In this document: piece by piece, positions 30-62,700 of the stretch
Layout of the letters: each line of letters starts with the position of its first letter
Numbering within the stretch: the first letter of the stretch is position 1
DNA from: Membranipora membranacea
Taxonomy: Eukaryota > Bryozoa > Gymnolaemata > Cheilostomatida > Membraniporidae
Direction: 5' to 3'
DNA length: 64,000 bases
NCBI GenBank assembly: GCA_914767715.1
Contig: OU612067.1
Location: 26,262,162-26,326,161 of the forward strand
Made by a program: the position numbers and the translations under genes
The notes under the pieces: generated by a model
What the model saw: the letters and a program-made list of their open reading frames with translations, nothing else
Database searches by the model: none
Told to the model about the DNA's origin: nothing

Positions 30-565
30 GTTTTCAATTGCTTGCTTGTTCGGTTATACCAACGAGGAAAGTCCTAAACTCCCTGGTTATACTTGAGCTA
101 CAAAACTAAACAGACCTTTAGAATAATCTTCGCAAGCTACTGAATCTATTGCAACTTTCAAACTCAAAATTCCATCAAAATTGGTTGAGATATAAGCATT
201 TAATCAGGACAAAATTATAGCTTTGAGTCTATGTACGATTTTCAATAGCTTGCTTTTTTGATAATATTTGAGCTACGAAGCTAAATAGACTATCAATATG
301 ATCACAAGAAGCTGCTGAATCTATTGCAATATTCAAACTCAAAATCCCATCCAAATTGATAGGAAAAAAACTTTAAATCAGGGCTGAAACTGCAAAAAAA
401 AGTTATAGCTTTGAGTCTATGTACTGTTTTAAATAGCTTGCTCTTTTGATAATATTTGAGCTATGGAGCTAAACCGACTATCAAAGTGATCACCAGAAGC
501 TGCTGAATCTATTGCAATTTTCAAACTTAAACTCCAACTGAAGCCAGTTGAGTTATCAACATTTA
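30..565. repeat. Tandem repeat, ~175-188 bp unit, about three copies
   Basis: Three consecutive units share anchor strings: TTGAGCTA at 93, 268 and 456, GAATCTATTGCAA near 141, 314 and 505, and a CTTGCT segment just before each anchor. Units differ by substitutions and small indels, so the array is not recent. No coding potential is seen. The first unit carries a short palindromic insertion (52-92) that the other two lack, which makes them a built-in empty-site control. Confidence 0.85.
52..92. mobile_element. Palindromic mini-insertion A (25 bp) with 8-bp target duplication
   Basis: GGTTATAC occurs at 52-59 and again at 85-92, enclosing a 25-bp imperfect palindrome (60-84) that contains GTCCTAAACTCCCT. 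In the neighbouring tandem units the homologous segment between CTTGCT and TTGAGCTA has exactly the length expected without the insert and one repeat. The gain of sequence is therefore directly visible. Confidence 0.8.
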
Positions 566-639
566 ACCCGAGCTGGGAACGGTAAATCAATGTTAGCTAT
601 GAGTAAAAATCACTGTTTCTACACCCTCCAGTGACGTCG

Positions 640-1909
640 CGTAACCATAATTATGTGCCTCACTGCCTCAATGCTAATGCTCCATACAGTGTCCTGTCTA
701 GGTTTATTATTAAGTCTATGGGCACGACCGAAGCTATCCTACAACTCCTAGATGATTGTACCTCTGACCTTGATATTGTGAATAACAAATATTAGCCTGT
801 CTTGACAAAGCTTGTCAAGACAGGCTAAACAAATATGTGCAATTGGACTTTTTAGATTTTTCGAAAGCTACAACCTAGTATTGTTATAGATAAGATGCGT
901 AAATGTGGTATTAATGAGAGTTTATTAGATATTTTGTGCAATTTTTTAGAGCAAAGGAAACAGTGCGTGAAAGTCAATCAAAGTTTTTCTGATTATATAG
1001 ACATATCTGTAGGTGCACCTCAGGGCACTAAGCTAGGCCCCCTACTATGGCTTTTTTATGTTAATGACCTAAGTCTAGGCGGCTACAATATGGTACAATA
1101 CGCAGATGATACAACATTTTACAAAACATTTAGCAATCAAGGAGAAAGCGTAGCTGAGGCTGTCAACCATACTATGAAATGGGCCATAGCTAATATGATG
1201 CTTTTGAATGCTAACAAGACGGTCATTATGAATGTTTATTTTAATGGTCGTACTAATTATGATGAGACTATTTTTGTTGATGATTCAGTAAGTGTTCAAC
1301 CTTCGACCGACCGATACCAAGTTTTTAGGCATACACATTGACAAACATCTAACTTTTAGTAATAATGTTGACAGCATTGTTTCAAGTTGCAATTCAAGGC
1401 TTTTTCTATTACGCCAACTGAAAGTCCTTGGTATGAATAGAGAAGGACTTAAACGATACTACTGTGCCAACATCCGATCCCTAATCACGTATGCCTCTCC
1501 TGCTTGGTTTTTTATGTTACATGATCAAGACAGGGATAGATTAGAAAGAATAAAGCGGTCACCTAGCAGGATCATTTTACCTGATCTTAGTTATAGTGAG
1601 AGATTACAAGTTTTAGCTTTGCCCACCGTATATGATTTTATTTTTGAACTCTCAAAGTGCCATTTTTTACGAATAGCTGATGATTCGACCCATCCACTTT
1701 ATAATCGTATACCAAGAAATTTTAGTAGGGTTTCCTCTCGCAATAATACCATTTTTAGACCTAAGAAATGTAGAACACAAAAGCGTGCCAAATCGTTTTT
1801 TCCTTTTTTTATGACATATTTCAACAATCACCGCTCTAAGTATTTTTTTTACGCATTGTACACATTCCACACTATCATCATTGATAACGAATGTATCAAT
1901 AAAATCTAG
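640..1909 (+). pseudogene. Broken non-LTR retrotransposon reverse transcriptase (CR1/L2/Jockey-like)
   Basis: Reverse transcriptase for target-primed retrotransposition. Recognisable blocks: FLDFSKA near 850 after a mini-insertion, GAPQGTKLGPLLWLFYVNDL at about 1012-1071, and the catalytic YADDT at about 1099-1113. Downstream are FLGIHID and the C-terminal segment ending around PKKCRTQKRAKSFFPFF. The frame shifts between the first piece (895-1341) and the second (1292-1909) near 1310, and a stop lies between FLDFSKA and the 895 piece. The 5' end, with any endonuclease, is missing or beyond recognition. Closely similar C-terminal sequence recurs on the minus strand at 6831-7085, so this is a family with several dead copies here. 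The exact clade is uncertain. Confidence 0.85.
784..836. mobile_element. Palindromic mini-insertion B (35 bp) with 9-bp target duplication
   Basis: AACAAATAT at 784-792 and 828-836 flank a perfect hairpin, 793-827. Its arms are TAGCCTGTCTTGACAA and the exact reverse complement, with a 3-base loop. It interrupts the retrotransposon frame just before FLDFSKA. Ignoring the insert and one repeat makes the frame contiguous through that motif. Confidence 0.8.
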
Positions 1910-2035
1910 TCTAATCATTATTCTCTCAAAGTCATATCACACTGATCATTGGATGATAATTTACAATGTGCTAGGTGTAGTTATCTTATCATGAAACAAG
2001 TGAGGACAACTTGGCAATAGTAAATGTTGTTATCA

Positions 2036-2072
2036 TTCCATCCAGGGAGTTTGGGTACTCCCTGTACCATCC
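2036..2072. mobile_element. Palindromic mini-insertion C (21 bp), 8-bp flanking repeats with one mismatch
   Basis: TTCCATCC (2036-2043) and TACCATCC (2065-2072) flank a hairpin with arms AGGGAGT/ACTCCCT. The arm sequence matches the CAAACTCCCTGG motif of insertions A and D. Confidence 0.55.
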
Positions 2073-2109
2073 ATTTATGCAATGTTAATAAGATACAAAG
2101 CTACAAAAA

Positions 2110-2277
2110 GGGCGTAATCAAAAAAAAAAAAAAAATAAAGTATGAAAAGATATAGATAGGCCCAAGGAAACGGTGGCTGGAATAATCGACCAGTGGGACT
2201 TGAACCCAGGACTCCTGAAGCACAAGTCACCTGGCAGTGAAAAGCAAGCGCACTAACGGATTGTGCCACCTCCGTCT
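2110..2277 (-). repeat. tRNA-derived SINE or decayed tRNA-like Pol III unit
   Basis: Read on the minus strand from 2277, the sequence has an A-box-like TGGCACAATCC...TTAGTGC, a D-stem GCAC/GTGC, and a good B box GGTTCAAGTCC near 2200. No 3' strand pairs with the GACGGAG acceptor start, so it is not a functional tRNA. About 60 bases past the B box there is a long T-run on this strand, a plausible Pol III terminator. Open frames across it are incidental. Confidence 0.7.
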
Positions 2278-2428
2278 CAACGTCACCCCATCAAGATATA
2301 TCATCATTCGATTTATTTTCATGTTTACAACAGTAACTTATCCTAATTATAAGGCAGAAATATTTTTTATGTAATTTTCAAAGTAATATGAATAAAACGT
2401 TTTAGAGCCATCTGATTTTTATTGTTTA

Positions 2429-2470
2429 GTACGATCAAGGAGTTAGATTCACTAACTCCTTGGTATGATC
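2429..2470. mobile_element. Palindromic mini-insertion D (26 bp), 8-bp flanking repeats with one mismatch
   Basis: GTACGATC (2429-2436) and GTATGATC (2463-2470) flank a hairpin at 2437-2462 with arms AAGGAGTTAG/CTAACTCCTT. The AACTCCTTG end resembles insertions A and C. Confidence 0.6.
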
Positions 2471-3198
2471 CTTCTCTAAACAACATCACTGAATAACTGT
2501 CATGAGTATCTTATTTGGTTCATAGATGCTCTCAATATTTATCTGATGTAATCCGGATGTGATGCTGCTGCAATACTTCTAGAACATTCTAAAATAATCT
2601 CATTGGTTGGACATCAACAAAAGACGGAATTGGAAATTCCAAATGTTGGGCTTTGTTTGAACTGGTGTCAGTAATTTCTACCTTGTCAGGATAGCCAGCA
2701 TGGGCTCGGCTTAATTATTCCCGATCTCTAACTTGTTCTGATGAACGCATGAGGCGTTACAGCAACCTGCCAGTCGAAAACATCTGTTTAAAACAAGTCT
2801 ACCAGCCAGGCATAAAAATTAGTTTGAATTACTATGATATGATTATATGTTTTGTACTAACTTACTATCTACAACTAACAGAGAAACTGCATATAATTTG
2901 ATTAACACGGTGAAAATAATCGTACAAGCTTGGTTAAGTCCGCTAGCAAATATGAAGTGCCGAAGGGCGGGCTAAAGTGAGGAGTTGTAAAGGCGATGAT
3001 TCATAGGAAGTTAAAAGCAGTTGCAGTACAGCCAAAGCATTTAAATGTTAAATTAAATGCTTATTATAAAAGACAAGACGTAAAAATTGAATGCATGAAT
3101 AGTAACTAAAATAGACTAAATATGAGTCATCTTTGTAAAGAGAAAAAGGAACACGAGTGAAGTACCAAACTCTATACTTATATATTCTATCACTCATT
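2471..3198. other. Intergenic, no gene seen
   Basis: No long frame, RNA gene or clear repeat. This is the 3' flank of the ankyrin/coiled-coil gene on the minus strand and probably includes its 3' UTR. Confidence 0.5.
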
Positions 3199-5966
3199 TT
3201 AATTGATACCATTTGGTATGATTGAAATCACTGCCAAATTGTTCTCAAAGTCTGAATGTTGGGTGCTTATTTGTTCAATTCGATGGCTTTGGTCGGATTG
3301 CTGAGTGTTGAGAAATTCTATTTGACTGCTGTGTCCAGTTACTTGATTGGAGAGCTGATTGATATGTTCAGTGATCTGAGTAACCTGAGTACTTGTCTGA
3401 TCAAGACGACTGTTGTGTGTTGTTAAACGGTTGCTTTGTATAGCTAGCCGAGTGTCGTGTATGGCTAATCGAGTGCGGTGATCAGTTAACTGATTGCTGT
3501 TGTCCACAAGATCACCCAGTCGGACTTTCATCTGATCTATCTGGTTGGTATTCTTGCTTACTTGCTCACCTATATGATTGTTATGGTCCTGTCCTGCTGC
3601 ATATACAAGGGATGATTTACATTCATGAATTCATTCATTCATTCATGAAGCAGATGTTTACATACAAAGGAAGTAGTGATCGTGTGGTTGCAGCATGTAT
3701 ATGCGCCAATAATTATGAAACTTATGCCTAGCAAGGCAGAATTGACATTAAAAAAAACTAACTTTTTGAATCATATGTTCTGCGAGAGGAACCGCTATCA
3801 AGTAAAAGCGTCATTCAGATTTGAATCTCAGAATACAGAACGAGTGATCATCTGTCAGGGAAGACAACTACTGAGTACTGAACTCATTTACTCAATATAT
3901 TCAATCACTTACCATGGTTATCATTGGTCAGCTGTTGTAGATCAGTAGCTTGAGCTCTCAGACTGTTCTCATGATTACTCAGCTGGGTTCTGTTTTGTTC
4001 TGATATCTGACTGGGTCCTGCTGTACTAACTGTCTGCTGGTGAAGCTTCTGTTCACACTGATCAACTCTTGAGGCCAGACCGGCTAACATATTCTTTAGG
4101 TTTGAATTCTCCTCTTCAAGCTTCTTTCTTTTAGTATTTCCCTTTCTTATTTTCTTTTTAAGCATTTTACTCTCTGAATTTCTGTTACTGTTTTCGGTTG
4201 TCAGTCTCTTTACATTGGCTGAGAGAATAGAACAGCGACGCTTGCATCCTCTCTCCTGTTGTTTTACCTTTTGCTGGATGAGGCCGTCAATCTTGTTCTC
4301 CAGGCGGTCAGTAATGAGTCTTGCTTGCTCATCCTGAAAAAGTCTGGCTCTACGATGATGTTCCCCTGCATAATAAACAATGAGACAATGTGTCGAATGA
4401 ATTAGGTAATCTCTACAATAGCCCAGTTTCTAGATTGCTTGCGGGCTGATTGTTGCTAGTTAGACTACCCCCCCCCCCCCCCCCCGTCGTCTGGTCGTCT
4501 GTCAAAGTAACGTAAAGAAATTATGATAACTGAAACGGGCTTAGTTTACTAAAAAGTCAAATTTCTGAACTATCCACAGGCTGATAGATTTTAAATGACA
4601 TATGTTCAATAAATATAAAAATGTCAGAAGATACACCGCACCATAGTATCAACCCTTTGTTTTAATTGTTTTGCAATACAAACAAATAAAATCTGTTACA
4701 AAGCGGAATAAATTTGTAATTATCTAAAAAGGTTAGCGAAGATGGCTAAGCTGACTTTCAATCAGAGTTTTCTGTTCATATGGTACAGTTTAGTTCGGTC
4801 AAAACTGATTGCCGGATCAATTTATTTGAGCATGTGATAAATGTTGAGGATAAATAACACAACAATAATATCTCCGACATCACACATGCCCACTTAAAAA
4901 AGCCATGTAAAGCTCACAATGGATGCTATGCAGAGTTATTCCACCCAGGAGTCAAGATAAGGTAATGGTTAAAATACAAAAGGTCATGTGCACCATCTTA
5001 TATGAACCAAATCAAAACTATATTTAGCTCATATTAAATTATTGACTTGGAAATAGAGAATTGACGCTGGATGTGATTTCACAACTTAAATTGTACTTTA
5101 TCATCTTTCAAAACACTAAAATAGCACAGGACTACCTGCTTTGCCAAAGAAACACTCGATGTAGTGGATGACATTGATGCAGTGAGTAACTTACATTCTG
5201 TCATGTGTCCTTTACTCATCGCAATATCAATAGCAGAGAGACCATGATTGTCCTTCTGGTCGAGAAGATTTTGTAGTTCAGCAGAAGAAACATGCCGAAT
5301 CTTATCCACAACGTTGTATGGATTGGCTAAACTTGCGAATTCATGGAACGCATTTTTACCTATGTCATTTTGTATACTCAGTACCATGATGAGACTATTT
5401 GCTGGTATCAGATTACACCATGTGATGAGACTGCCAGTACCAGCAGCACGATGTAGAGGTGTGTCTCCAATTATTATATCCTGTATCTTGAGTAGCGAAA
5501 CAATCTGATGAGCAGTAAGACAGAGGGACATGTATCGGGCTATTTCCAAGGGGCAACCATAATGTAGGGGAGTACACCCATAACAGTCTTTGATCTGTAA
5601 AAGGTTAATCAGAGCATTATCATCTCTCACATTACCAAGTAACACCTTCAGACACTTGTAACCATCCTCACCATCGTTTATAGTAAGGTGTAGAGGTGTC
5701 AACTGATCATAATCCTGTAACTGTAAAAGTTCTATTAGGTGATCTTCTGTCAGGTGATTACAGATGACTTTAAGGAGACCCAAATGTCTGATGGCAATAT
5801 GGAACAACGGTATATCGACCACGATCCCGAAACGACTGTAGTTTAATGTGATAGTCTTGTGAGCGTTCTTTACCAGTTCCGACTCTACACCTGATATAGC
5901 TCTTTCCAGCTGTATGGCATCGTTTTTATATACAGCTTCTCTCATTTCCAAGTAGAGTTCATCCAT
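3199..5966 (-). CDS. Ankyrin-repeat plus heptad coiled-coil protein, 540 aa, three exons
   Basis: Exons on the minus strand: 5966-5195, 4365-3913, 3596-3199. Donors GAAT|GTAAGT and CATG|GTAAGT and acceptors TTATGCAG and TATATGCAG give consistent phase 1 joins and a 540-residue frame. The start is firm: the in-frame TGA at 5970-5972 lies two codons upstream of ATG. Residues ~45-257 hold five or six degenerate ankyrin repeats (TPLHLTI ~90, TPLHYG ~132, TPLHRAA ~169, NAFHEFA ~205, SAIDIA ~244), each preceded by an LLxIQD-type helix. Exon 2 is a charged coiled coil (LFQDEQARLITDRLENKIDG, later KKLEEENSNLKNML). Exon 3 is almost pure heptads (RLAIHDT, RLAIQSN, RLTTHNS and so on). No signal peptide or membrane segment is seen. 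Such proteins normally act as oligomeric scaffolds. The partner is unknown. The repeat style is reminiscent of large demosponge ankyrin families. Confidence 0.85.
4473..4486. repeat. Poly-C tract
   Basis: An uninterrupted C run of about 14-17 bases in intron 1 of the ankyrin/coiled-coil gene. Similar G or C runs occur near 6653, 7976, 8646 and 57080, and their exact lengths may be affected by sequencing. Confidence 0.7.
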
Positions 5967-6830
5967 TTCTCAGGTCTTGTGTGATCCTCTCTGTTATATC
6001 AGTGTTATAGGTTACTCTGTGTCTAGGTACGAGATAGCTGTGTCAACAATTCTGATGTGAACTTTTGAGAGGAGTGATACCTGAATGATTGAATATAACA
6101 AATATGACAAGGCAATTTTGCTACTAACAGCTTTGGAATTTCCAGTTTCCCATGAGTAATAATAATCCCAACCTATCAGCCTACTGCGTGCTATTTTTTT
6201 CACGATGTTGAAGTAGCCTGTCAGTGTGTGTCACCGTATGAGGAAGACAACCTAATCTTTATCACATTACTCTGTATAAATGATCATTTATTCTAATCCT
6301 CATTAATAATCAAAGATCTACATGACAGTGTCCAATAAAGTGCAGGAATACAAACAAGCAGACTAATTAATTTAAGGTGTTATGACTTTCCGGAAACAAG
6401 GAATTATCTCCCCGCCAAATAAATTGAATACGGCTCATATATCGAGTTTGTCCATATGTCCCAATAGTGCCTTTAATTAGCCTCAGCTCCACCCGACACC
6501 AAACTTGAATTTTCAGTGCTAAAACTCTGCCAGGGTTGATGGTTCATTGTAAACAACCTTCTTATGTTATAGATGGATGCCGCTCCGCCAACCAGGCAGA
6601 GTTTGAGCAGGTAAACTATATCAGAGAGGGGCTATACAGAGCATGTTACAAAAGGGGGGGGGCTTGTTCTTAACAGTGATTATGAGCCTGCATATACAAA
6701 GAGGAAGCTACAGAGGGGAAAATTTCCAGATCACTCGGGATCTCATACCTGAGTCACCTTATACTTGGAGCATTGTGTAATCAAATTTGGTTTTGGTTTT
6801 ATGGTTTGGTTTATTATAATAATCCATGTA

Positions 6831-7320
6831 TCAACAGGCGATAAGTTTGGATTGGTACATGAAAATGAACAATTTAATTTTGTTGAGAGCTGACATGTAG
6901 TGTGGAAAAAAGCGCTTTAAATGCTTTTGTGTCCTGCACTTTGGTGGGCGATAGATGGTATGTAGGCGAGAGGAAACCTTTGCACAATCAAAAACACGAC
7001 TAAAAAGAGGATGGTCTTCATTGGGCGCAATATTGTAAAAAACAGTTTTAGACATCTCAGAAATAAAATCACAGAAAGTAGGCAATTCAGGTAAAGGATG
7101 ACTTATATTGCAAATCCGCGACTTAAAGTTTCAAACATAAAGTTGTATTAACATGACATCATAATCACAGTGTAACCGTACATAATTAACTCTATCTGGG
7201 ACGGGATATTTCTTATGAGTAACCCGCACCATCCTCGACAAAAAATTAAAACTGCTTCAACCCATAATGTCGACTCGATAAGTTATCCCTCCTGGCCGAT
7301 GTCACAATACCGACATAAAA
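6831..7320 (-). pseudogene. Non-LTR retrotransposon C-terminal fragment
   Basis: The minus-strand frame 7085-6831 reads FCDFISEMSK...HPLFSR...RPPKCRTQKHLKRFFPHY. It parallels the C-terminus of the element at 640-1909 (YDFIFELSK...HPLYNR...RPKKCRTQK). Weaker, frame-broken similarity extends upstream to about 7320. Dead fragment. Confidence 0.75.
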
Positions 7321-7549
7321 CTAATAGTATAATAATACATATCAGTGATTGCAGACAAATAAACTCACTAAATATTTATTGATTGATTGATTGATTTGTA
7401 TTCTATCACTATAACTGTAAGAGTTGCGAGAAAAAGGCTGCTGGTACACGTACTCTGCTAAAAAATAATGAAGTTGCCTTGCATGCAAAAATAGTATTAT
7501 TAAAAAGTAGTTAAAAAATTGTATTATTAATATGAATGCAGGATGTGTC

Positions 7550-7852
7550 TTAAAAAGCAGTCTTTGCCCCACGCAGTGCGGTATTTAGAGGGGCACACCG
7601 TTCGAGGTAGTTCTGGATAAAGTGTTCGTCGTCAGTGAATATCTGCATTACACGATTTTTTAAATGAGTGTTTACTAGAGTGTCGAGATCATAATTAAGC
7701 TGTAATCCTAGCGAGGAAGCATCTTTAAATATTTTGCGCATGTCCTTCTTATCTCGTTGATAAATGGCAGGATAGAGGACTGGTAGACAATACTTAATAA
7801 GTGAAACAATAAAACTTTTAAAAAGCATGCATGCTAGTGGCTTGGTACTCAA
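7550..7852 (-). pseudogene. Second non-LTR retrotransposon 3' fragment, different family
   Basis: The frame reads LFKSFIVSLIKYCLPVLYPA, then a K/R-rich helix and HLKNRVMQIFTDDEHFI. This layout is typical of the region after the reverse transcriptase palm in LINE ORF2 proteins. It has no catalytic motif and ends in ordinary AT-rich DNA. The family is not resolved. Confidence 0.6.
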
Positions 7853-15832: not shown

Positions 15833-15866
15833 ATCGGCCTAGCATGTCTAGACATGCCATCGGCCT
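15833..15866. mobile_element. Palindromic mini-insertion H (18 bp) nested in the Harbinger element, exact 8-bp duplication
   Basis: ATCGGCCT at 15833-15840 and 15859-15866 encloses AGCATGTCTAGACATGCC, whose core GCATGTCTAGACATGC is a perfect palindrome. It lies about 30 bp inside the right inverted repeat. Confidence 0.7.
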
Positions 15867-18071: not shown

Positions 18072-18115
18072 ATTGTAACCATAGACTTATAGAGTTATAA
18101 CTCTATGATTGTAAC
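18072..18115. mobile_element. Palindromic mini-insertion E (28 bp), exact 8-bp duplication
   Basis: ATTGTAAC at 18072-18079 and 18108-18115 flanks a 28-bp near-palindrome that begins CATAGAC and ends CTCTATG. Its inner part TAGAGTTATAACTCTA is a perfect palindrome. The end sequence matches insertion F at 61880. Confidence 0.75.
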
Positions 18116-32900: not shown

Positions 32901-35900
32901 CTTTGTCGTCCGAAGAAATGAATAATTTCCAGCTCACCTTTCTTAGTTTGACATTGTGTAATCTCTACGTCGACCCTGTAAGCCTGATACAGGCTGGTGA
33001 GACTTGGTAGTGTTATGATCTGATAGGTTAGCTTGGGTTCTGTTCTGTTTATTACCGGGTCTCGATGATGATAAAGAGACCGGGGGAAGTCAAGAGCTAG
33101 GTCTAAGGCTGTTGGAGCTTGATACACCTTTGTGTGTGTCCGAGTATTGAAAATTATGGCATTTAGAAATATCTGTAAATAAAGTAAAGAGTCTTCATGC
33201 CTCATTGTTTATAGCAGACAAAATTAATTTACACCAAATATATGACATTTTTTTAGGTGTGGAGGTCACCCTCATAATAATAAAAGCCAAATGAGGTCCT
33301 TTCAAGCAACTGAGGCACAAATGATAAAAAATATAGAGAAATTTATATGGAGTTGTCTTCTAAATAAATAAATCTCAAGGAGAACATAATCCCAAAATAT
33401 ATAATGCATTTTATTGATAGGTGTGCATATTATGTGCTATGTATTGTTAGCAAGTCAGAGGATATTCTATACTTACAGGAGATGTGACTTTTTTGACATG
33501 TATGAGTATATGTGTGTATTTTTGTAATGTTGCTGTGTTTATGTGCATATAAACTCTAGTAGTCTTTGTAGGAGCAAGACGCTGCAGAGGAGTCAAATCA
33601 ACACCAGATGTGCTAAAATATAAAGAGTGAAATTATGAAAAGGTAGCAAAGCTCAAGACCTCATCCATAGACAAAGTGTGTGCTTAGTGTCTATGACCTC
33701 ATCATTTGTCTGTTTCCATGCTTTATATTTTGTTTTCAAATATCGCAACTTTTTTGTGACAAGAATTTGGTGGAGTATAACATTGTTAAGAGTTTGGCTT
33801 AATAAATTTCAACGGTTTTTAGGCACAGCCGGATGCAAATGAGTGATGGCAGCTCTGCCTCTGACCTATTGAGCACTTCTGATAGTTGTGCACTAGTGAC
33901 ACAAAATTTATTCCCTTGTAAACTTATCCGGCAGCGTTTACAAGTTAATAAAAACAATACTGACTAATGATGTTAACTTACCATGAATCCTGTCCGATAG
34001 TCATAGTACAACCAAACACCCATGACTTCCAGCGATTGTTTGATTCTATGACCATCTCATTATATTTCCCTTTTTCTATCTTCATGGAGAAGTATTTATC
34101 CATAGTTGACTGAAAAATACAAGGCAAGTGAAAAATCGACATTCTAAGGGAATATTGAGGCAGGGGGTTTGGCAACCGGGCGGGTAGGTTATTATGGAAT
34201 TCCCATTACAGTCATAAGATCCAATGTTTGAGCAATTTTTTTTATATTACTTCACATTCAGGACCATTCAATTGGTTGGTTTTCCAATGATAAGCAAGAA
34301 CAGGCCTAACTAAATAACTTAACGTTAGAGAATGTTGCCATATTCTTGCCACTAGTTACAGCGTTATATCTACCCCTGGTTACAGTGTTGCATATCCACC
34401 ACTAGCTTCAGTGTTACATGTCCACCCCTAGTTGCAGCGTTACATATCCACCCCTAGCTCCAGGGTAATATATCTAGACTTACTGTATAATCATGTAGTA
34501 GTAAGTGATCAGTCTCTAAGTTATCATATTCAAACTGATCGCTGAGTTTAATCTCTTCACTACTCGTGTCCGTGTAGCTGTGGTGTCCTGTGTTATTTAT
34601 CATGTGGAATCCAAACGCTTTCCTCACATGGGATAGCTGACTTTTGAGCTGAAATAGAGAAACAAGATTGAGCAAATATGTTTTTGGTAATGTTTCATCA
34701 TCAAAGTATCAAATTCGGTTTTTATACTGCTAGTAGGTTTCTAGTCCATCTGGTATAACATGATAATGTTGTAAATAAAAGAGACAAAAATCTAGACTTT
34801 AAAAAACTCATTAATTACTCTGATATTCACTATGAGGCTTACAGTCAATGTATGTTAAGACTAGGTAACTCACATTACTGGATTTATCCACAGTGAGGTC
34901 ACAGAGTGCTCTGACTAGAGAGAGGACAACCTGACGACACCAGACAGCACAGAGGTGATCTGTGGAGACCCAGCCACGGGGTAACGACTCCGTCTGTCAA
35001 ATATAGAGCGATATATGTTATTGTAAATATAAACAGAGACTTAATATAATAGCAAAAAAAGGGAGTTTGAAACAAACGCACTGCTGTGAACGAAAATCGA
35101 GACTTCGATGTATGGTATGATGAGCAAGTGACCAGAGTTTTTAAATATACAAAATACAGTATACCCGATAGGAGTTTAATTTAGCTAGAGTTTAATTTAG
35201 CTAGAGTTTAATTTCGAACTTGACCTGGTACTAAATTTCGCTCGTAGGCTTACTAGTGAAAATTTTAAAAAAATGTCCAAGACGGGATTTGAACCCAGGA
35301 CATAACCCTCCATCTGATTGCAAGGCAGACACTTAGACCACTACACCGCACTACCCTGCATGCATATGTGAGGTGTATTCCTGTATAATTGTACATTGTT
35401 TATGAAACTATGGTGAGTGAGTTTAATTTAAGATACACTAAATTTCGCTACTTAGGCAATAACGCGAGAAGCGAATCCTAAATGCCGCGAAAACTAAACT
35501 CCTATTAGGGTAAGCGATTTAGCTCTGAGAGCTAAGGAGCCTTTTTTGGAATTCTATGCCATTTGATATCTATTATCAGATATCCAAAAGGGTGATGGAT
35601 ATTTACATGCCATAAGATCTCAGGCAGTAAAATATTGAGCACTCAAATGATGAAACAACAGCATTGGGAATATTGAGAGATCAAAATACTTATTTAACAT
35701 TTCTCCAAACACAAATCTCAATAACACAAGGAGCACACCGGTGAACTTGGCCAGCAGTGCACAGAAAGGATCAATTCTCCATCCCTGAGATTATTGAGTC
35801 CAGTCCATCCATGTGAGATTATTATAACTCACATTAGCAGAGATGGCTCGGTTACTGTTAGTAAGGCCATCTAATCTTGTAGCGTAATAGCTGACAAGAA

Positions 35901-48122: not shown

Positions 48123-48128
48123 TATAAA
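48123..48128 (+). promoter_or_regulatory. TATA box of MGN copy 2
   Basis: TATAAA followed by GG, 113 bp upstream of the ATG at 48236. Confidence 0.65.
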
Positions 48129-48235
48129 GGCGTTTGACGAGGCACGTTTGAGTAGCGCTGACAAACCTTAGTCTTAGACTGTACTTTTATCACAGCAGAA
48201 GCAAAACACGGCAATAAACCTTGCTTATATCTGGA

Positions 48236-52624: not shown

Positions 52625-52632
52625 TATAAATA
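52625..52632 (+). promoter_or_regulatory. TATA box of MGN copy 3
   Basis: TATAAATA, 119 bp upstream of the ATG at 52744. A TCTTCCC...ACAATGATGG block lies about 50 bp further upstream. Confidence 0.65.
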
Positions 52633-52743
52633 CACAAGATGTTCAATGGCTTCTTATTCTACCTGTGTAGACTATTCTCAGTGCATCAAACTACGCTTGT
52701 AGTTCAACAGACGGGATACCAACAATAAACAGGAATTTCAGAA

Positions 52744-55700
52744 ATGGGAAACAGACACAGTCACAGCACATTCGAACTTAGTAAGAATTGGAATCATCTG
52801 AAGGCAAAATTTTCAATGAATACTTGTTAATTGCTAGCTAGAAAATTAACCAACATCTGTGCATCCAAATATAGATAACGACATGTGGTAGCGTCAAGAG
52901 AAACTGCGCCATTTCACACATATATTTATATATATATATATAATAGATTTGTGTATACATAAACAAGCAGAGTTGTCTTCATAGCAAATAAATTATTAAG
53001 ACCTTTTCACAGCCCTTCCATTGTTTATTGCAGAAGGAACATACTTATGGGTTCTGGACGGCAGCAAAGTCGAAATTATCTCCTCCATAACAAATCATCT
53101 ACACCCGAACATTGATGAGACCGATGGCAACAACACCAGACAAGTTCCTGAGCAAGGAACAGGCTTCAATCTGTCAGACTTTTCAGAGATTGAGTTTGCA
53201 GGAGCCAAGGCTGATGGCGGTCGACCAATAGTTCAACTGAGAAAACATCAGCACACTAGTAGCTCATATGTCATCAGACAAGTCACGGTTCTATGTGAAG
53301 ACATAAGAGTAAGTACCATACCACCACCTCGACCCTATTCTTCTCGGCCTGTTGGCTAAGATCAAAGTGTCACTGCCAATGGGCGATGAGTGCCTGTTAT
53401 CAGTTTTTGGCAGCTTGATGCACAACTCACGATTAGGAGGTCCCCCATGGCCTCACCTCTAGGATGCATTCTAGTTTACTAGGATCTATCACACTCTCAG
53501 TACGAGGATTTCGGGCAACTTGTGTCCCTATTTAGGGGCAGCCCACCCTCTGTTTTTTCATAAACAGGGCTATTCTTCTTTATCACTCTTGTAAACTCTG
53601 ACTACTAACTTCACACTAAACAATCAATTTAAATTATTTTAAAAATATTGTGCCAACAATAATAGCAAATTTTCAAATTTGCGCCATAGCAGGCCGCTCT
53701 ATTAAATAAATTGGTAAACAACTGTCTGCAATACTCATGTCATTAGACTAACAATAGGCTTTTGACATGGTGAATTGCTACATGAAAGCAATGAACATAC
53801 ACAAAGATAATTTATAATAAATTTTATATCAACTATATATTAAAAAACTGAGACATGCCTTGAAGTCAATGGCCATCTCTCGCAAACCGTTTTTCTAGAG
53901 AGGGGTGTCAGACAAGGATGCCCTCTGTCGGCAACTCTCTATACTATCTTTATCCAATCCTGCATTTCATTTCTGTGTAAAAGCAAGAACCTATAAATGT
54001 ATATCACTGCCCAATAACCAAAGGGCAGTGTGCCCAGCTTACGCTGGCGACCTTCTTTTTTTGTGATAGCATAGCTAATGTTGAGACAATCTTTTTCTTC
54101 CTTTGATAAATGTATCTGGGTACTGGTGGTAAACTTAATGAAACAAAAACTAAGCTCTTGCCAATTGGAGATATGTAACAGTTACAGTAAACAAGCAAAA
54201 CTTAACACAATACATTTAAAAATCCATAGTAGAAAAGAAATTAAAATATTTTAAAAACATCCCATGCTCTATAAGAGGTAAAATCCTTATATTTAATATC
54301 ATCATTTTTCCAATCCTGTACTTTTTGGCTCCTTTTTTACCAAACCAGGAGTTCTCCACACATTTCAAGACCCTCAAAAGCCGATGGGAGGTTTTTAAAC
54401 ATAATACCCTCAAACTAGAAACAGACAAAGGTGACCTCATACATGAAAATAATAGATGGCTCGCTTTTTTCCTTTTCCTCAATTTAATTTAGCCAAGCGG
54501 TGAATCTTTTGAACACCCACGCCTTGCTCTTCATAAGTTATTATTCTCTTTTTGATCTAGAGACATCTATAGTTCAATGTATAAGACCACCGAGCCTCAT
54601 TGTTTTAAAATCATTCGACCATATCAACAGGTTAGAGAATCTCTCAGCACTTTAAAAAAGTCACCAAGACACATTGAAGATCTCTTCCCTGCAATACACC
54701 AACTTTATGAATGGCTGAGAGGAGATAAAGAAGAAGCCACTATTAAATTACCAAATAAAATAAACCATAAAAGATAATTACCTCAACAAATATTCAACAT
54801 TTGGACAGACTCTGTTCTTACTGTCCCACTCATCGATTTTATGTGGCGCCTAGCATTTGAAGAGCTTAAAACAGGTGAATACATTAAAAAGATAAAAAAC
54901 TTCCAGAGGCAAATGTCACGTGCGCCTTTTGTTCAGAGTGTGTGATCGAAAAAATCTTCAACCACCCTGTAAAACTCTTGTCACACATAGAATATTAATA
55001 ATAACACTAAAGAGTGAAATAAGCGTCTACCAGGCTCAAAATCTCAAAAGAGCTGAGCTAATTCTCCTTTTTGCACAGGAGTCATAGAAACCCCAGACCC
55101 TATCCTTCTTAGTCTCACTATGGTCTCACCTCTAGGATGCATTCTAATTTTCTTGTGACGGCACTAAACCACTATGCCACACACTGAGCGGTTTCTAGGG
55201 CGATTTGACGAGACTTTTAATTGCACACCAGCATCTTTATTGCTCTCTCAAACAACACACACCAAACTGAGTAAAAACTATCTCTTATATAGTACTACCA
55301 AAAAGATGTGAAAACAAGACATCATATTGATATCAATGAATTGCAAAAACTAGGTAATAGCAAAGCGATAATTGATTGGCTCACACTCATCAAGACGGCA
55401 AAGCGTAATCACACACACCAGGACACAGCCCATTATTTGGTCATTGTTATTGTAATAAATGTCTATTAAAATGTCATTATTTCTGCCACTGGAAATTAAT
55501 AGGAAATGATTATTATTATGGCATTTCCAGTGACAGCCAGAATGGTCACTGTCATGACCTGATACATGACAGGTGATGGCTGTCACACTAACACTGACCT
55601 GATACTGACCTGACACTGACAATGTCCTAGCACTGACACTGACCTGACACTGACCTGACACTGACCTGACACTGACCTGACACTGACCTGACACTGACCT

Positions 55701-58412
55701 GACACTGACCTGACACTGACCTGACACTGACCTGACACTGACCTGACACTGACCTGACACTGACCTGACACTGACCTGACACTGACCTGACACTGACCTG
55801 ACACTGTCCTGACAAGGTACAAGTAATTTCTTAGGTAGTTCTAGTTATCCTGTCCATCTGCGATCTGCGTTACCCTACTCAAGCCTATGTAAACATGATG
55901 CAAATGTCGTATTAGATAATTTAGATGTTTATGGGCGGAGTGAGCATCAAATTCAGGCCTCTCGGGCCAGTATACCGGAAATCACCAACTCTTCTATGAT
56001 GAAGAAATAGTCAGGTTTGACTTGATAATCAGGCACAATTCCGGATACTAAACCCTGCAGGAAAATTTCAACAAATTCTTATGATGCAGAAATAATTAAG
56101 TTTATCAGTTTGCCTCAGTGAATGGGGTAACATAATATCAGACCATACATCAGTTCTCTCACCTTAATAGTTTCCCCTGCTACTGAAGAAGCTAAAATAA
56201 AGGAGGCAAATGTGTAGACGCAGATCTGTTCGATAAGCTCCATTTTTACACCTGAATATGGTTGTAATTTATATTGTTTGGTTTGAAGTCAGTATCAGTA
56301 AACCTTGCTCCATATGGATTTGGCAGCGATAACGACAGCTTAACTTCTGTGACTGTATTTATACTGATATTCATGTTAAAAGACATTGATTTGTCTAGAT
56401 ACATTGTATCATGGGGAGGGGCCTCTGTACTTATTCCAACCGCTGAAGGATCCATGTGGAAACTCATACTTTCCCACTAATTCCATAAGATATGGCTTTT
56501 TGTTGCACCATGGTGACATTTGTGTGGTTAACATACTGACACCTAGACTTATGATACTTTATACATTGCCAATCCTGATTATTAATAAACTAAACTTATC
56601 TAGCCTATCAATTCCTAGGTAGATACATATGATAAGAATATCAGTCTCTAGAATTATGTGCGGCTCAATATACAAAACACTGTGGAAGATCTACGCAAAC
56701 AAGCCGACATGTTTTTCATTAGCAGCTAGAATATTTTTCCCAGCAAGAGTGAAAAAATAAGGCTATAGCTTTCAGGCATGTCAGGTGCTGTCATCTGAAA
56801 AATAGTTTTGTCAATAAAGACACTGCTGAAAATTATTTATAGTTAGCAATATATTGAAGGCTATAGAGCTGGTGTGTGTACTAAGAATATTTTATCTCCA
56901 TGAGGCATCTTTACTCTGTAGTGAGGTTGATAACATTCTTGCTCGGTCTGAACACACATATTCATATAGTGAATATTTTGTTTCTCCCAAATGAATGCTG
57001 CTGCATTCACCCACTTTTGAAACCTTAAGGCCACAATCATCCTAACCCTAATCATTTTCCATCTGGGGGGCCGTCGGGCGGGGGGGGGGGGCAAGAGCCT
57101 GGTGGCGCAGACTATCTTTGCCTCATAATGATTGCTGAATCTTGAATCAACGTATCTCATTTAACCTAGAATACCAAATCATGAAACAAAGTCATCTTTT
57201 GTTAGAATAGACAGTTTTCTGAGCTCTTATTTATGCCTGAAAGAGGGTTATCTTGAAAACCGCTTATGTGATGATAAAACTGAGTTTTGATTCAGAGTCT
57301 GCACCATTGAAAACCCTGTGAGACAGGGTTTCCAAATCATTGGAGGTTTGTATGTTGATAAATCTTAATTTTAGTGACGAAACTCATGAAAAATTCTGCC
57401 AAATTGTCCGCAAAACAGGCAGAAAATACCATAATTGACTATCCAAATACTAAAATTTTTTCCCATACTATGTCCATATGAGTTTTCAATGCTGCAGATT
57501 CTGAATCAAAAAATCCTTTTATAAGCGGTTATCAAGATAACCCTCTTTACAGCACATTTTTCCTATGCGGCATGGGTTAAAAGTACCAAACTGGAGACAG
57601 GACAACTCCGAATCGAGGCCTTAATCAGAGCTCAGAAAACTGTCTATTTACGTTAGAAAAGAACACAAGGCATTTCGGAAATTGATTAAGTCTAGCAACC
57701 TTAAAAAACAGCTGATGCACAGAAGCAACAACGATTGCACACCAATATACAAACTGCGGGTTTGATGGCATCCAATTCCTAATCCAGAGAGCAAGCTGAG
57801 ACTAAACTAAGGTTGATTGTACTTGGAGATGACAGAGCAAACAATTTAGAATAAGTGGAATAAGTACCATTAGTATTTATCTCCGTGTTGATTCCATTAC
57901 CGAAATTAATTTTTTAAGTTAAGGGTTTATTCTGATCCAACATCGGTGATTTTTTGCTACCTTACAATCACTATGGTTCCATGCTTCGAACGAGTGGTCC
58001 ACTCCCATTTCGAATGATGAATGCTAACGATTTCCATGATGAAAAAACATGAAAAGACATCTGCCAGTCATTGTGTGTAGCCACGCTATCCAATTATCCA
58101 CACCACCTTAAGTGATGATCAAGAATGAAAACAATATATGGTTTCGCATCAAGAAATGACTATCAAGAAATGCCTATCAATATGCGATTGGGCCTAAAAC
58201 TGATGTCATGTCGACGTATGGGACCATAGTGAATAGCTATTTCAGGGCTCCGCAAAATAGCAAACATTTTCCCCCATCAAATATTTTACTCCTTCAGAGT
58301 AATCAAAGCCATATATCACACCTGGTAATTCAAACATTCAATTCTGTATATGAAATCTTTTAACATTTTACAGGTATTTGATGAGTTGGTAGCTGTGATC
58401 AAAGACCAGTAG
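52744..58412 (+). CDS. MGN-family small protein, copy 3, 116 aa, three exons, 5-kb intron 2
   Basis: Exons 52744-52780, 53034-53308, 58374-58412. Donors CTTA|GTAAGA and AGA|GTAAGT and acceptors TTATTGCAG and TTTACAG give phases 1 and 0. It starts MGNRHSHSTF (predicted myristoylation). The core GTYLWVLDGSKVEIISS and GTGFNLSDFSEIEFAG is nearly identical to copy 2. The tail VFDELVAVIKDQ differs more. The intron between exons 2 and 3 has grown to 5 kb and contains a U2-like fragment, a LINE remnant, an 11-bp minisatellite and a MITE. Splicing efficiency may therefore be affected. Confidence 0.8.
52919..52943. repeat. TA-rich microsatellite
   Basis: Runs of (TA)n with one TTT interruption, in intron 1 of MGN copy 3. 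Confidence 0.8.
53341..53410 (+). ncRNA. U2 snRNA-like 5' fragment (retrosequence or SINE head)
   Basis: TTCTCGGCCTGTTGGCTAAG, then ATCAA and GTGT, closely match the 5' end of U2 snRNA (stem I and the branch-site region start). CTGTTATCAGTTT matches the later CTTATCAGTTT block. The middle is diverged, the Sm site and 3' domain are absent, and no snRNA promoter is evident. It is a pseudogene or a chimeric retroposon, not a working U2 gene. Confidence 0.6.
53838..55100 (+). pseudogene. Decayed L1/Tx1-like LINE in intron 2 of MGN copy 3
   Basis: The reverse transcriptase block ERGVRQGCPLSATLYTIF lies at about 53897-53950. GGKLNETKTKLLPIGD follows near 54117-54170, and a late ORF2 block (VPLIDFMWRLAFEELKTGEY) near 54827. 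Frames are broken many times. GCPLSATL is typical of the L1 superfamily. The upstream U2-like fragment is noteworthy, because some Tx1-clade elements insert in U2 genes. Confidence 0.65.
55590..55813. repeat. 11-bp minisatellite (ACTGACCTGAC), about 16-20 units
   Basis: Near-perfect units run from about 55633 to 55807, with degenerate units on both edges. Because 11 is not a multiple of 3 and no stop arises, the minus strand is open in all three frames (SGQCQVSVRSV). These frames are by-products of the repeat. Confidence 0.9.
55953..56243 (-). CDS. Possible two-exon small protein, 60 aa, hypothetical
   Basis: Exon 56243-56163 encodes MELIEQICVYTFASFILASS, then VAGETIK, which is signal-peptide-like. 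It ends at a fair donor (AAG|GTGAGA). After a 108-bp intron with acceptor TTTCCTGCAG, exon 56054-55953 reads GLVSGIVPDYQVKPDYFFII, then EELVISGILAREA and stop. Joins are in phase. It lies antisense within intron 2 of MGN copy 3. The frame just upstream (56467-56246, ending NPYGARFTDTDFKPNN) could be another exon, but I see no good junction. No family is recognised. Confidence 0.3.
57208..57646. mobile_element. MITE with long inverted repeats, TA target duplication, 435 bp
   Basis: Left arm from 57210 (GACAGTTTTCTGAGCTCT...GAGGGTTATCTTGA...AACCGCTTAT...GATTCAG) and right arm ending 57644 are reverse complements over about 100 bp. The right arm carries an extra ~60 bp. Both ends are bordered by TA. 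No coding capacity. Tc1/mariner-type by its target, but not assigned further. Confidence 0.75.
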
Positions 58413-59715
58413 CGTGGTGGGAGAGAAGTTCTTAGTTAATTTGAAGCAAGTTAATCAGCATACCAAAGCACATCACTCACTGCAATGCTCGTAAGGGGTA
58501 TTGAACTACGGACTAACAGTGTAGGGTACATACATTTTACCTATAATATTTTTGAACCAAGTCAACAACGTAATTTTTTGTTTGAACGTAATTATGTATT
58601 ATAATTTTTGGTCAAAATTCACATATATTAGAAGCTGACCATAGATTTTCATTACTGATAGACGAGATATTGTGTTGGATGACCAGGTCCTCATCACTTT
58701 TCATTTTGTGACATACAAATGACTAGTTAGCTTCCCATGGTTATAAAAAAATGATTCTTGAAAGACAGCTTAAAATTTAAAACCTCAAGCAGCAAAATTC
58801 AAATTAACATTAACATTCAACATACTTTTATTTTTTTATTGTTTATGCTATAAATTTAGTTCAATCAAATCAAATAATTTGGCATAATAGTATATAAAGG
58901 AAATAAAGATAGTCCTTTGACTAAAGTGATGGCTGTCCCGGTGGTTACCCATGAAAAGCACTCTCACAATCCGATAAGTCGAAGCACAAGTCAACACAGC
59001 GTCCACTGCTGAGCGTAAACCCAGATGTGCTCAGGATTGCTCCCAGATCGTATCCAGTCTTCCAATAGGTACTGGTTTTACCTACAGTTTCCTCCCATCC
59101 CTGTTGTTGTTAGCTTGAGTTGTTTTAGGGCTTTTGATCTTGTATCATGGTTGTGTTCTAGCAAAAGTTTCAAAATTGTGTTTTTAAAAGAAATTTTAAT
59201 AATCTATATCGAAAAAGCATTTTTGAAGGTAATACTCATAAAATGCAATGGGCTCAATGCAGCTTTTGGTAAATTTTTTATTATGAGTTTGAAATTTGTT
59301 GCATAAGTCTCAGATTCAGAACTCAATGCAATATATAAGATGGGGATAAATAGAATGTATAGTATATCGGTCATTGTAATGTCATCTAAAAATACCCTAC
59401 CTGCTCTCACCATTAGCAGCAGGGAGGGCAGGTTCAAATGAAGCTTTTTAGCCATCCCCCAACTATTGTCTTCCCTTGCAATAATGGAGGATGACTCCTA
59501 AGTGTAGAAGTGCTGTGTCAGCGGTCAATGATATGGATCATATAGTGCAACACACAAAGTGCAACCAATACTGATTCCTGGTTGCATGGTGGTCAACATC
59601 GAATCATAGCATAGGAGACTGGGGTTTATCAAATAATGAGGGGTGAGAGAGACTGCTGCAGGCTCCAAGTGGCTCACGAGTGGCTGTCAATATAATTTCT
59701 CACAATCTTTCAGAC
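58413..59715. other. Interval after MGN copy 3
   Basis: No gene supported. Near 59464 there is TCTTCCCTTGCAATAATGG, resembling the block upstream of the MGN copy 3 TATA box. Frames 59025-59455 on both strands have no support. Confidence 0.45.
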
Positions 59716-62700
59716 ATGTCTTTACTAAAAGATTCAGATAAAATTTCTCGTCTTAGATCTTTAGCACCCTCACTTAATTCTGGGACAATCTCTTTCCGAG
59801 CTGGCTCGAAAATCAGGCTGATGCAAATGGAAGCCAAAGCTAACAAGGCAGCACTCCAAAAGGAACTTGAGGCCTCTCAAACAACCCTAGCGCTGCAGCA
59901 GCAAGCCCAGCAGATCGCAATTACGAGCAGAATCTGATGCTGCTGTTGCTCAGGAAAAAATCATATCGCAAGCAATTGAGGAGGATAAAATTGTTTCACT
60001 TTTCAGCCCACCTTCTCAACATAAACACGATGTCACAAAACCTGTTCCTCAGCAAACCAGTAAATATTCTGATCCTATGCAAATCACATTACCGCAAGTT
60101 GAACCCACTGACCTACCAAATACAAGCGCACCTCCGCCACAGCCAGTAAGACAGCGACCAAATCAAACATCTGCTCCTCAACTTGTGTATCTATCACCAG
60201 ACAATTATAATCACAGCCATGCACAGGGTCCAATCGCAGTCAGTCCATTACAAATTGGCTCCACAACCTCAGAACAGCAAGCATTCGCTACAACATTAGC
60301 CCAAGCTATCCACACTATCAAACTCAAACCTGCCGAGCCCGCCATATTCTATGATGGTCCTCTTGATTATTTAGACTGCAAAGTATCATTTGAAGGCCTT
60401 ATTGAGAGTGGCAGTTATGCCCCTCTACAAAAACTAGCCCTCCTCCAGCAGTATCTGGGTGGTATGGCAAAAAGAGAAGCATAAAAATTATTCCAAATTG
60501 GTACTCAAGAAGCCTTCCAAGCGGCAAAAAGAAAACTAGATAAAAGGTTTGGCAAACCTCACATCCTCACTGAAGCATACCTTTCCAACCTCGAACAGTG
60601 GCCCCTCCTCAAAGAACAAGATGGGGAGGCACTGGAAGGGCTTGTTGATTTTTTAGATTCATGTCAAACCGCTATGACAAAATTACCGGAGTTACGCTGC
60701 CTCAATGAGAGGCTCGAAAATGAAAACATTCTAATGAAGCTACCACTTTCCATAGGAGATCGTTGGGTCATAATAGCAACTGATATCGAGGCTAACACAA
60801 TGAAGTTCTCATCTCTATTTGATTTCACCCATTTCTTGACAAAGGAAGCTGATATAGCTAGTAACAGCCTCAACAAAGCCCTCACTAGAAGAGCAATATC
60901 ATATCACAAATATGATGGGCACAAAGAAATCAAAACCCCTCACCAACCTGAAAAGCGTGTAACCACACTGCTCACATCTGAAAGTCACACATCATTTGAA
61001 CACAATACATCAACAGATAGAAACAAACCAAAACATAAAAGATCTCCATGCATATTTTGTAACATGGACAACCACACCACAGGTAAATGTTTTCAGTTGA
61101 CAAAAGCATCCGATGAAGACAAAGAAAAATTCTTTACTGACGAAAATCTGTGTTTTTCATGCGCAAAGCCATACCACAGCATGAATAAGTGTAAGCATCC
61201 AGACTCATGGCACTCATGCACCAAAAGAGATTGTGGTGACAACTTCTTAGAGTGTTCCATGACTATTACACTCGAGGCAGCGAAAGTAAGACCTCTCCAA
61301 CGACACTTTCATCAAATCCTCCCCAAAACCAACAGCAATGACAATAACGCCTCATATCCCGATCAACAGCAAAGATCAAATAAAATACAAGGCAGCGAAG
61401 ATAAGACCTCAAAATCAAAACCAGCAAACAATAATATACCTGAACCACAAGCAAGCAATCATGCCACTGCTACAGTGCGCAACTGCACATATGCAGACAA
61501 TAAACCCGCTAACCTAGCATCATGGACCATTCCAGTATATGTGTCATCATTAGAAAACCCTGATCAAAAGACTCTTGTTTGTGCTCTACTAGACTCTGGG
61601 TCAAATAGAACCTCATAAGTCAGAATACTCTGCAGAAACTCAAGATATCCTCATGAAACAGAAATGAAAAGTAGCACTCTTACTGATGTTAATGGAACCA
61701 ATATAACAAACAGAAATATATAAATCTACCAACATGCGTAAAGCCAATCACACATCCCATTCAATAGGGAAGATATACCCAACTCAATGTCTGTACAAGA
61801 CTGGCCCATTTACACAATCTTGCAACTAAATTTATTGCAGCAAAACATGGAAATACATTAGAACTTGGACTGCTGATAGGGAATAACCATAGACCTACTA
61901 ATAATATTTATTATTAGTAGGTCTATGGGAATAACTTACCACAGGTGTTTATCTCCAGGCAAGAAGTAAGTAGGGCAGATCATGAGCCTTTCTTCTGGCC
62001 TACTGACCTGGGATGGATTTTGATTGGAAATACAGCAAAGCATTCCCCATTAATCATTCAACTACTATAGTAAACCTAGCAATTTCTCAACCAACCACAA
62101 GAGAACATATTTCTCTCAAAATAGAAGCAGAGAAACCCAATCCTGATAATGATGATAACAATGTCAATCTAGAAACTAAGCCAAACAAAGTTCCCAGTTC
62201 TGACTTCCATTCTAAGCAAGCTGATGAAACTCTTTCCACTGATGATAAAAACTTTCTAAAGACCATGAAAAACCACGTCTATAAAGATGATGATGGTCAT
62301 ACCACAATGCCGCTGCCTATTAAATGCAAGCCAAGTGTACAGAAATCCAAAATCATGACACTAAATCCTTCCAAACTACTACGGAAGAAACTCTCTGATC
62401 CATTGTTTTCCGAACACTATCACAAATTCACATCTCAAGGTGATGCCGATATCATTCCTCCTTATCAGCGAGGGAATGCTGAATCATATTATGGTGTATA
62501 CATCCCTAAAGAACCTGATAAAATCCGCTTTGTTTTATAAAGCGCTGCCAAGGGGGGAGGCAGGATATCAGACAGCTTTCAGTTTAGCTCCTTTCCTAAT
62601 CTTAACCCTTCAACTGGTAGGGTTGTTTTATCCACCAATGCATCTATCTATGACCCTTTCGGTTTCATATCTCCTTACATCCTCCAAAGTAATAACATTC

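What the first reader, a model, noticed from the sequence alone, without database searches (positions are those of the whole stretch)
52..61935. A recurrent class of ultra-short palindromic insertions with 8-bp target duplications
Seven sites share one architecture: an 18-40-bp palindrome between two direct repeats of 8 bp (9 in one). Exact repeats: 52-92, 784-836, 15833-15866, 18072-18115, 61880-61935. One mismatch: 2036-2072, 2429-2470. Ends fall into at least two groups: CAAGGAGTT/AACTCCYTG-like (52, 2036, 2429) and CATAGAC/GTCTATG-like (18072, 61880). Eight-bp duplications are known for hAT transposases, and several ends fit the loose hAT terminal pattern YARNG. A plausible reading is that elements collapsed to fused terminal repeats are still mobilised by a full-length hAT elsewhere. 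Alternatives are abnormal excision repair or hairpin-capped DNA capture. Elements this small are, to my knowledge, hardly described because repeat finders ignore them.
Basis: partly seen in the sequence, partly recalled or inferred. Interest (0 to 1): 0.9.

Follow-up and report, generated by a model that had tools for sequence, protein, structure and literature searches.

The report
Scars of departed P-type jumping genes
In the genome of a sea mat (a bryozoan), tiny palindromes sit between identical 7- or 8-letter repeats; they are likely scars left where P-type jumping genes were cut out, and one of them carries at both ends the first 19 letters of such an element that is still present in the genome.

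Summary
One end type alone (CAAGGAGTT..AACTCCTTG, 18-48 bp) occurs 1103 times genome-wide against 1 for the reversed control. Of 40 of these fetched without looking at flanks, 27 have exact 7-bp repeats and 35 at most one mismatch; identity at other repeat lengths is 0.20-0.32. So CAAGGAG/CAATGAA sites have 7-bp duplications; CATAGAC sites have 8.

hAT mobilisation is not supported. Best explanation: excision scars of P-superfamily transposons, i.e. both target duplications plus a stub of each terminal repeat, joined by error-prone repair. Window palindrome 61888-61927 is the first 19 nt of a resident P element's 35-bp terminal repeat, once from each end; the four copies whose ends I read have four different perfect 8-bp duplications, and the one read whole encodes all five P-transposase domains. 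Laboratory P scars in Drosophila have this architecture (PMC2895639).

Weak points: no parent found for the 7-bp class; identical palindromes recur at unrelated sites, so movement of the palindromes themselves is not excluded.

The parts
53..92 (.). 7-bp-class site: GTTATAC (53-59), insert 60-85 CAACGAGGAAAGTCCTAAACTCCCTG, GTTATAC (86-92); lies inside the P-like element that ends at 720
2036..2071 (.). 7-bp-class site: TTCCATC, insert 2043-2064 CAGGGAGTTTGGGTACTCCCTG, TACCATC (one mismatch)
2429..2469 (.). 7-bp-class site: GTACGAT, insert 2436-2462 CAAGGAGTTAGATTCACTAACTCCTTG, GTATGAT (one mismatch)
18072..18115 (.). 8-bp-class site: ATTGTAAC, insert 18080-18107 CATAGACTTATAGAGTTATAACTCTATG, ATTGTAAC; first 10 nt equal the start of the terminal repeat of the element ending at 720
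33658..33703 (.).
61880..61935 (.). 8-bp-class site with known parent: GGAATAAC, insert 61888-61927 = first 19 nt of the P-element terminal repeat + TT + the same 19 nt inverted, GGAATAAC
1..720 (-). right part of a 1208-bp element (L069:9513 to window 720), presumably non-autonomous, with perfect 30-bp terminal repeats CATAGACTTAATAATAAACCTAGACAGGAC akin to those of the P element, and 8-bp duplication GGCACGGC/GGCACGAC
784..836 (.). separate group, 9-bp repeats: AACAAATAT, insert 793-827 TAGCCTGTCTTGACAAAGCTTGTCAAGACAGGCTA, AACAAATAT; interrupts a reverse-transcriptase reading frame
15833..15866 (.). unassigned site: ATCGGCCT, insert 15841-15858 AGCATGTCTAGACATGCC, ATCGGCCT

Best explanation
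These palindromes are most likely excision scars of P-superfamily DNA transposons: an element inserted and duplicated 7 or 8 bp of target, was later cut out, and the break was joined leaving both duplications and a short stub of each inverted terminal repeat. Shown here: the duplications and their exact lengths; a palindromic target consensus in the 7-bp class (T..RTnnnAY..A); one empty paralogous site with a single target copy; a resident P-type element whose terminal repeat begins with the same 19 nt as both arms of the window palindrome 61888-61927. Known from flies (Drosophila P): transposase cuts at the outer boundary on one strand and 17 nt inside the element on the other, leaving 17-nt non-complementary 3' tails on the donor ends; alternative end joining, partly by DNA polymerase theta, fuses them at 1-3-nt microhomologies or with templated filler, giving TSD + CATGATGAAATAAC(AT)GTTATTTCATCATG + TSD. 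Inferred: that the same cut and the same joining made the scars in this bryozoan, in the germ line, and that the CAAGGAG and CAATGAA scars come from P-superfamily elements with a 7-bp duplication, as Galileo has.
For: Parent found: L081:422-5354, 4933 bp, perfect 8-bp duplication GTTAGATC, first 35 nt of both ends identical (35 of the first 36), open frames with THAP, PF12017 HTH, PF21787 RNaseH-N, PF21788 GTP-binding insertion and PF21789 RNaseH-C; 555-aa frame matches the solved Drosophila P transposase 6p5a at E 6.7e-13. Three further copies with the same ends have duplications GATCAGCA, GTTCAGGC and GAAATACC on both sides (only ends and the PF21787 place were seen). At least 134 PF21787 matches in the genome, 150 of 211 candidates scored. 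All 3 CATAGAC..GTCTATG palindromes of up to 82 bp in the sequence I held, picked without looking at flanks, have 8-bp repeats with at most one mismatch. Inserts are short and varied: 34 distinct among 50 listed of 1103, 18-39 bp, many sharing a 13-15-nt start (CAAGGAGTTARAGAC) followed by different bases. No excess of longer elements with CAAGGAG or CAATGAA ends plus 7-bp duplication in 288 kb. Target consensus in 35 sites: T at -3 in 23, T at position 2 in 25, A at position 6 in 29, A at +3 in 24, symmetrical as for Galileo (7-bp GTANTAC/GTATTAC; passages of PMC4168063). Single-copy target in the paralogue of L028:5592-5612 (28-bp gap = 21 + 7). Two inserts in tandem sharing three copies of GTTGTAT (L004:929-999) and one insert nested in another (L080:5891-5959), as expected of repeated visits. 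Same architecture in Table 1 of PMC2895639 (passages), where one microhomology join was recovered 14 times; 17-nt cut in PMC7776569 section 7.
Against: Parent identified for one palindrome only; none for the more numerous 7-bp class: 6 P loci plus L080 and L082 lack those ends as a pair. The 61888 stubs match the terminal repeat over 19 nt, more than the 17 nt of Drosophila; the last two could be filler, but that is not shown. Identical palindromes recur at unrelated sites with exact duplications (CAAGGAGTTAACTCCTTG 6 of 50; CAAGGAGTTTGAAAACTCCCTG at 5 sites; CAATGAACTCCCTCTTCATTG at 3 sites), which microhomology joins allow but a mobile micro-element would also give. An empty site with one target copy fits scars and mobile micro-elements alike. 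The whole-genome measurement of where scar arms leave the known terminal repeat did not complete. The 9-bp TAGCC sites have a stub of about 24 nt (L028:7991, compare L069) and do not fit; 15841 is unassigned.
Confidence: 0.7

Rival explanations
1. The palindromes are themselves mobile: collapsed elements of 18-40 bp, only fused terminal repeats, still moved in trans by a full-length transposase (P-type rather than hAT).
For: Identical short palindromes at unrelated sites with exact duplications; more than a thousand perfect-arm copies of one end type; no longer element with those ends found in 288 kb.
Against: 34 distinct forms among 50 and continuous lengths are not what amplification of a few masters gives. 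P transposase also needs internal 10-bp binding sites (PMC7776569 section 7), which an 18-bp unit lacks, and two ends cannot be synapsed on 18 bp (inference).
Confidence: 0.18
2. The palindromes are internal-deletion remnants from interrupted gap repair (synthesis-dependent strand annealing) after excision, so transposon ends of any length are kept and no special cut is needed.
For: Known for P elements (the P{wa} assay of PMC2895639, passages); would also explain the longer stub of the TAGCC sites.
Against: Predicts a wide size spread with many longer remnants; searches for longer elements with CAAGGAG or CAATGAA ends and a 7-bp duplication gave no excess over the reversed-end control, and CA..TG inserts above 45 bp at k=7 were at the simulated level (6 vs 3-8, one of the 6 being the tandem pair of scars in L004).
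Confidence: 0.08
3. hAT mini-elements.
For: 8-bp class has 8-bp duplications; CAAGG and CAATG fit YARNG (pattern recalled); hAT transposase matches are present (150).
Against: 7-bp duplications in the commoner class; CATAG does not fit YARNG; the CATAGAC parent is a P element.
Confidence: 0.03

Closest known systems
Drosophila P-element excision junctions (PMC2895639, Tables 1-3; passages seen)
   Same: Target duplication on both sides, CA..TG ends, stubs of both terminal repeats fused at 1-3-nt self-complementary microhomologies or with templated filler, recurrent identical joins.
   Different: Made in the laboratory at one locus with 8-bp duplications and 17-nt tails; here dispersed through an unmanipulated assembly, several families, a 7-bp class, apparent stubs of about 15 nt (7-bp class) and 19 nt (61888).
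P superfamily: P, 1360, Galileo (PMC4168063, passages; PMC7776569, section 7 and passages)
   Same: THAP-HTH-RNaseH-GBD transposase, 8-bp duplications in L081; 7-bp duplications with a palindromic target consensus in the CAAGGAG/CAATGAA class, as in Galileo.
   Different: The 7-bp-class parent was not found; bryozoan host; 35-bp terminal repeats (31 bp in Drosophila P).
P-derived MITEs of Anopheles gambiae (PMC1562414, passages)
   Same: Short non-autonomous P relatives with terminal repeats and 8-bp duplications, like the 483-bp L009:6261-6743 and the 1208-bp element ending at window 720.
   Different: Those named in the passages are roughly 200-700 bp; the palindromes here are 16-41 bp with nothing but fused ends.
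hAT MITEs
   Same: 8-bp duplication in the CATAGAC class.
   Different: 7-bp duplications in the other class, P-type parent, and hAT excision is recalled to leave no terminal-repeat stubs.

Membership tests
P superfamily (element L081:422-5354) | THAP domain, P-type HTH, RNase H with GTP-binding insertion | tested here: met
   PF05485, PF12017, PF21787, PF21788 in one 555-aa frame, PF21789 in a second frame; 6p5a match E 6.7e-13
P superfamily (element L081:422-5354) | Terminal inverted repeats of about 30 bp and 7- or 8-bp target duplication | tested here: met
   35-bp identical ends; four copies with perfect 8-bp duplications
P superfamily (element L081:422-5354) | Active transposase | not testable with these tools
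   splicing and activity unknown
P-element excision scar | Both target duplications kept around fused stubs | tested here: met
   27 of 40 exact and 35 of 40 with at most one mismatch at 7 bp; 12 and 22 of 38; 3 of 3 with at most one mismatch at 8 bp for CATAGAC
P-element excision scar | Stubs equal to the outer end of a resident element's terminal repeat | tested here: met
   61888-61927 only: 19 nt from each end
P-element excision scar | Same, for the CAAGGAG and CAATGAA classes | tested here: inconclusive
   no parent found in the P loci looked at
P-element excision scar | Stub length capped at the cut (17 nt in Drosophila) | tested here: inconclusive
   apparent 15 nt in the CAAGGAGTTARAGAC forms, 19 nt at 61888; genome-wide search not answered
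hAT MITE | 8-bp target duplication | tested here: not met
   7 bp for CAAGGAG and for the CAATGAA sites seen; met for CATAGAC
hAT MITE | Full-length hAT with the same ends | tested here: inconclusive
   4 of 150 hAT matches looked at, none with paired ends

The most novel reading that the evidence does not exclude
The palindromes are the smallest mobile DNA known: units of 18-27 bp consisting only of fused P-type terminal repeats that are cut and re-inserted in trans, some forms (CAAGGAGTTAACTCCTTG and others) having amplified as such across a bryozoan genome.
Probability: 0.15. Interest if true: 0.92.

Novelty: new variant of a known kind. Interest (0 to 1): 0.66.

Why it matters
If scars: the genome keeps a countable record of transposon departures, site by site, for elements that are mostly gone, together with thousands of natural end-joining junctions (extrapolated: 7 CA..TG sites in the 200-kb grid would mean roughly 12,000 in 339 Mb; a small count). 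That makes excision rate, excision-to-survival ratio and the footprint of alternative end joining measurable in a wild animal, without an assay. Repeat annotation is unlikely to list insertions of 25-50 bp. It would also extend P-type cut-and-paste scars beyond flies to a lophotrochozoan and to a 7-bp-duplication class.

Tried and rejected
hAT origin (rejected for the CATAGAC class by its P parent; unlikely for the rest by the 7-bp duplication). Chance (rejected). Larger MITEs with the CAAGGAG or CAATGAA ends: none above control in 288 kb. L015:2380-4103 was considered as a 7-bp-duplication parent: CA..TG ends, GCACGAC, 18-nt subterminal inverted repeat, no long frame; left undecided. L080 was considered as the CAAGGAG parent because CAAGGAG motifs flank its P frame; they are separate palindromes with no shared duplication. 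Rfam found nothing. Literature: listings showed no title on natural genome-wide P excision scars or on P elements of bryozoans; only listings and passages of five papers plus one section of PMC7776569 were seen, and subscription journals are not held.
Full report
What the window is. The window is C3:26262162-26326161 of G000, 339,339,785 bases in 18 contigs. The lengths of C1-C11 equal the 11 chromosome sizes given for Membranipora membranacea in PMC10290214 (passages; that paper counts 21 scaffolds). A zinc-finger-like window protein has its only named relative in another bryozoan, Watersipora subatra.

Check of the observation. The seven sites exist. A scan that asks only for inverted ends abutted by exact direct repeats finds an excess at repeat lengths 7-9 in 20 evenly placed 10-kb stretches and in the window. 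The ends are not random: CA..TG leads with 9 of 22 at 7 bp and 3 of 5 at 8 bp. With CA..TG ends and inserts of at most 45 bp there are 7 sites at 7 bp and 3 at 8 bp, against none in five simulations. One further site lies at 33658-33703.

Two main classes. Class A ends in CAAGGAGTT or CAATGAAC and has 7-bp duplications; class B ends in CATAGAC and has 8-bp duplications. For class A the test is free of flank selection: sites were chosen by their palindrome only. Of 38 such 22-bp palindromes 12 had exact 7-bp repeats and 22 at most one mismatch, mean identity 0.737 at 7 and 0.21-0.28 at every other length from 4 to 12. Of 40 palindromes of 18-39 bp, 27 were exact and 35 had at most one mismatch, 0.911 against 0.20-0.32. 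Copies of one duplicated region are among them (L048-L051; L035 and L046; L089, L093 and L100). The 35 best have a symmetrical target consensus: T at -3 (23), G or A at 1 (29), T at 2 (25), A at 6 (29), C or T at 7 (27), A at +3 (24). Genome-wide, perfect-arm palindromes CAAGGAGTT N0-30 AACTCCTTG number 1103 against 1 for the reversed pattern. For class B, the 3 CATAGAC..GTCTATG palindromes in the sequence I held all have 8-bp repeats with at most one mismatch.

These are insertions. A paralogue of the repeat that holds L028:5592-5612 lacks exactly 28 bp, the 21-bp palindrome plus one 7-bp copy. At window 784-836, taking out the insert and one 9-bp copy leaves an open stretch of 37 residues of a reverse transcriptase, where the occupied site has a stop.

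The parent of class B. Of three P-transposase loci fetched in full, L081 holds an element from 422 to 5354 with duplication GTTAGATC and 35 identical bases at both ends, CATAGACCTACTAATAATAAACCTAGACAGGTGAC. It carries THAP, HTH, RNaseH-N, GTP-binding and RNaseH-C domains in two open frames and matches the solved Drosophila P transposase 6p5a. Three further copies have the same ends (one base different in one of the six) and duplications GATCAGCA, GTTCAGGC and GAAATACC. The window palindrome 61888-61927 is CATAGACCTACTAATAATA, TT, and the same 19 bases inverted. The genome has at least 134 places with this P-type domain and at least 150 with the hAT dimerisation domain. The window's first 720 bases are the end of a 1208-bp relative (30-bp perfect ends CATAGACTTAATAATAAACCTAGACAGGAC, duplication GGCACGGC/GGCACGAC), and the class A site at 53-92 lies inside it.

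Mechanism. Drosophila P transposase cuts 17 bp inside the element on one strand (PMC7776569 section 7), leaving 17-nt non-complementary 3' tails on the donor ends (PMC2895639, passages). Table 1 of that paper lists junctions such as acccagac CATGATGAAATAAC(AT)GTTATTTCATCATG acccagac (14 isolates), others with fillers of 1-15 nt, and also joins that lost the stubs. The bryozoan sites look the same: duplications on both sides, CA..TG ends, palindromes of 16-41 bp, variable centres (34 distinct of 50), forms that share 15 nt (CAAGGAGTTARAGAC) and then differ, fillers that look copied from the terminal repeat (L083, L104), recurrent identical joins. Two inserts in tandem between three copies of GTTGTAT (L004) and one insert nested in another (L080:5891-5959) fit repeated insertion and excision at one target. 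That the same enzyme geometry and repair made them here is inference.

What does not fit or is open. No parent was found for class A. Identical palindromes at unrelated sites with exact duplications could also mean that some palindromes move as units. The 19-nt stub of 61888 exceeds 17. The TAGCC sites (window 793-827; L028:7991-8018) have 9-bp repeats and, by comparison with an approximately 75-bp element in L069, a stub of about 24 nt: another group, superfamily unknown. 15841-15858 is unassigned. The search that would measure the cut position was asked and not answered.

Verdict.

Noticed in passing
window 59891-62540: Open frames with a zinc-knuckle-like stretch and a DSG protease-like motif (read by eye), suggesting an LTR-type retroelement; the 61888 palindrome lies between two of its frames.
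   Followed up: no
L069:9142-9600 and window 856-1909: Two parts of a non-LTR-like reverse-transcriptase gene, interrupted by the 1208-bp P-like element and by the 9-bp-repeat palindrome at 793-827.
   Followed up: partly
L015:2380-4103: 1724-bp candidate element: duplication GCACGAC (7 bp), CA..TG ends, 18-nt subterminal inverted repeat; could be a non-autonomous relative with 7-bp duplication.
   Followed up: partly
L002:1717-1848, L004:1715-1846, L003:1711-1820: 110-132-bp palindromic element CACAGGCCTTCTGTAGTTGG.. with duplication ATGCAAAC inside a longer repeat that also holds CAAGGAGTTACTGAACTCC.
   Followed up: no
L069:8790-8890, L028:7991-8018, L023:880-960: TAGCCAATGTGTTGGCTCTGATTG-ended short elements (9-bp duplication at L028), superfamily unknown.
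   Followed up: partly
window 55591-55814: Tandem array of about 20 copies of an 11-bp unit ACACTGACCTG, open in one frame.
   Followed up: no
G000:C6:8105097-8371334 (L048-L051): Four copies of one CAAGGAG palindrome with shared flanks over 270 kb: a duplicated region whose copies date the scar relative to the duplication.
   Followed up: no
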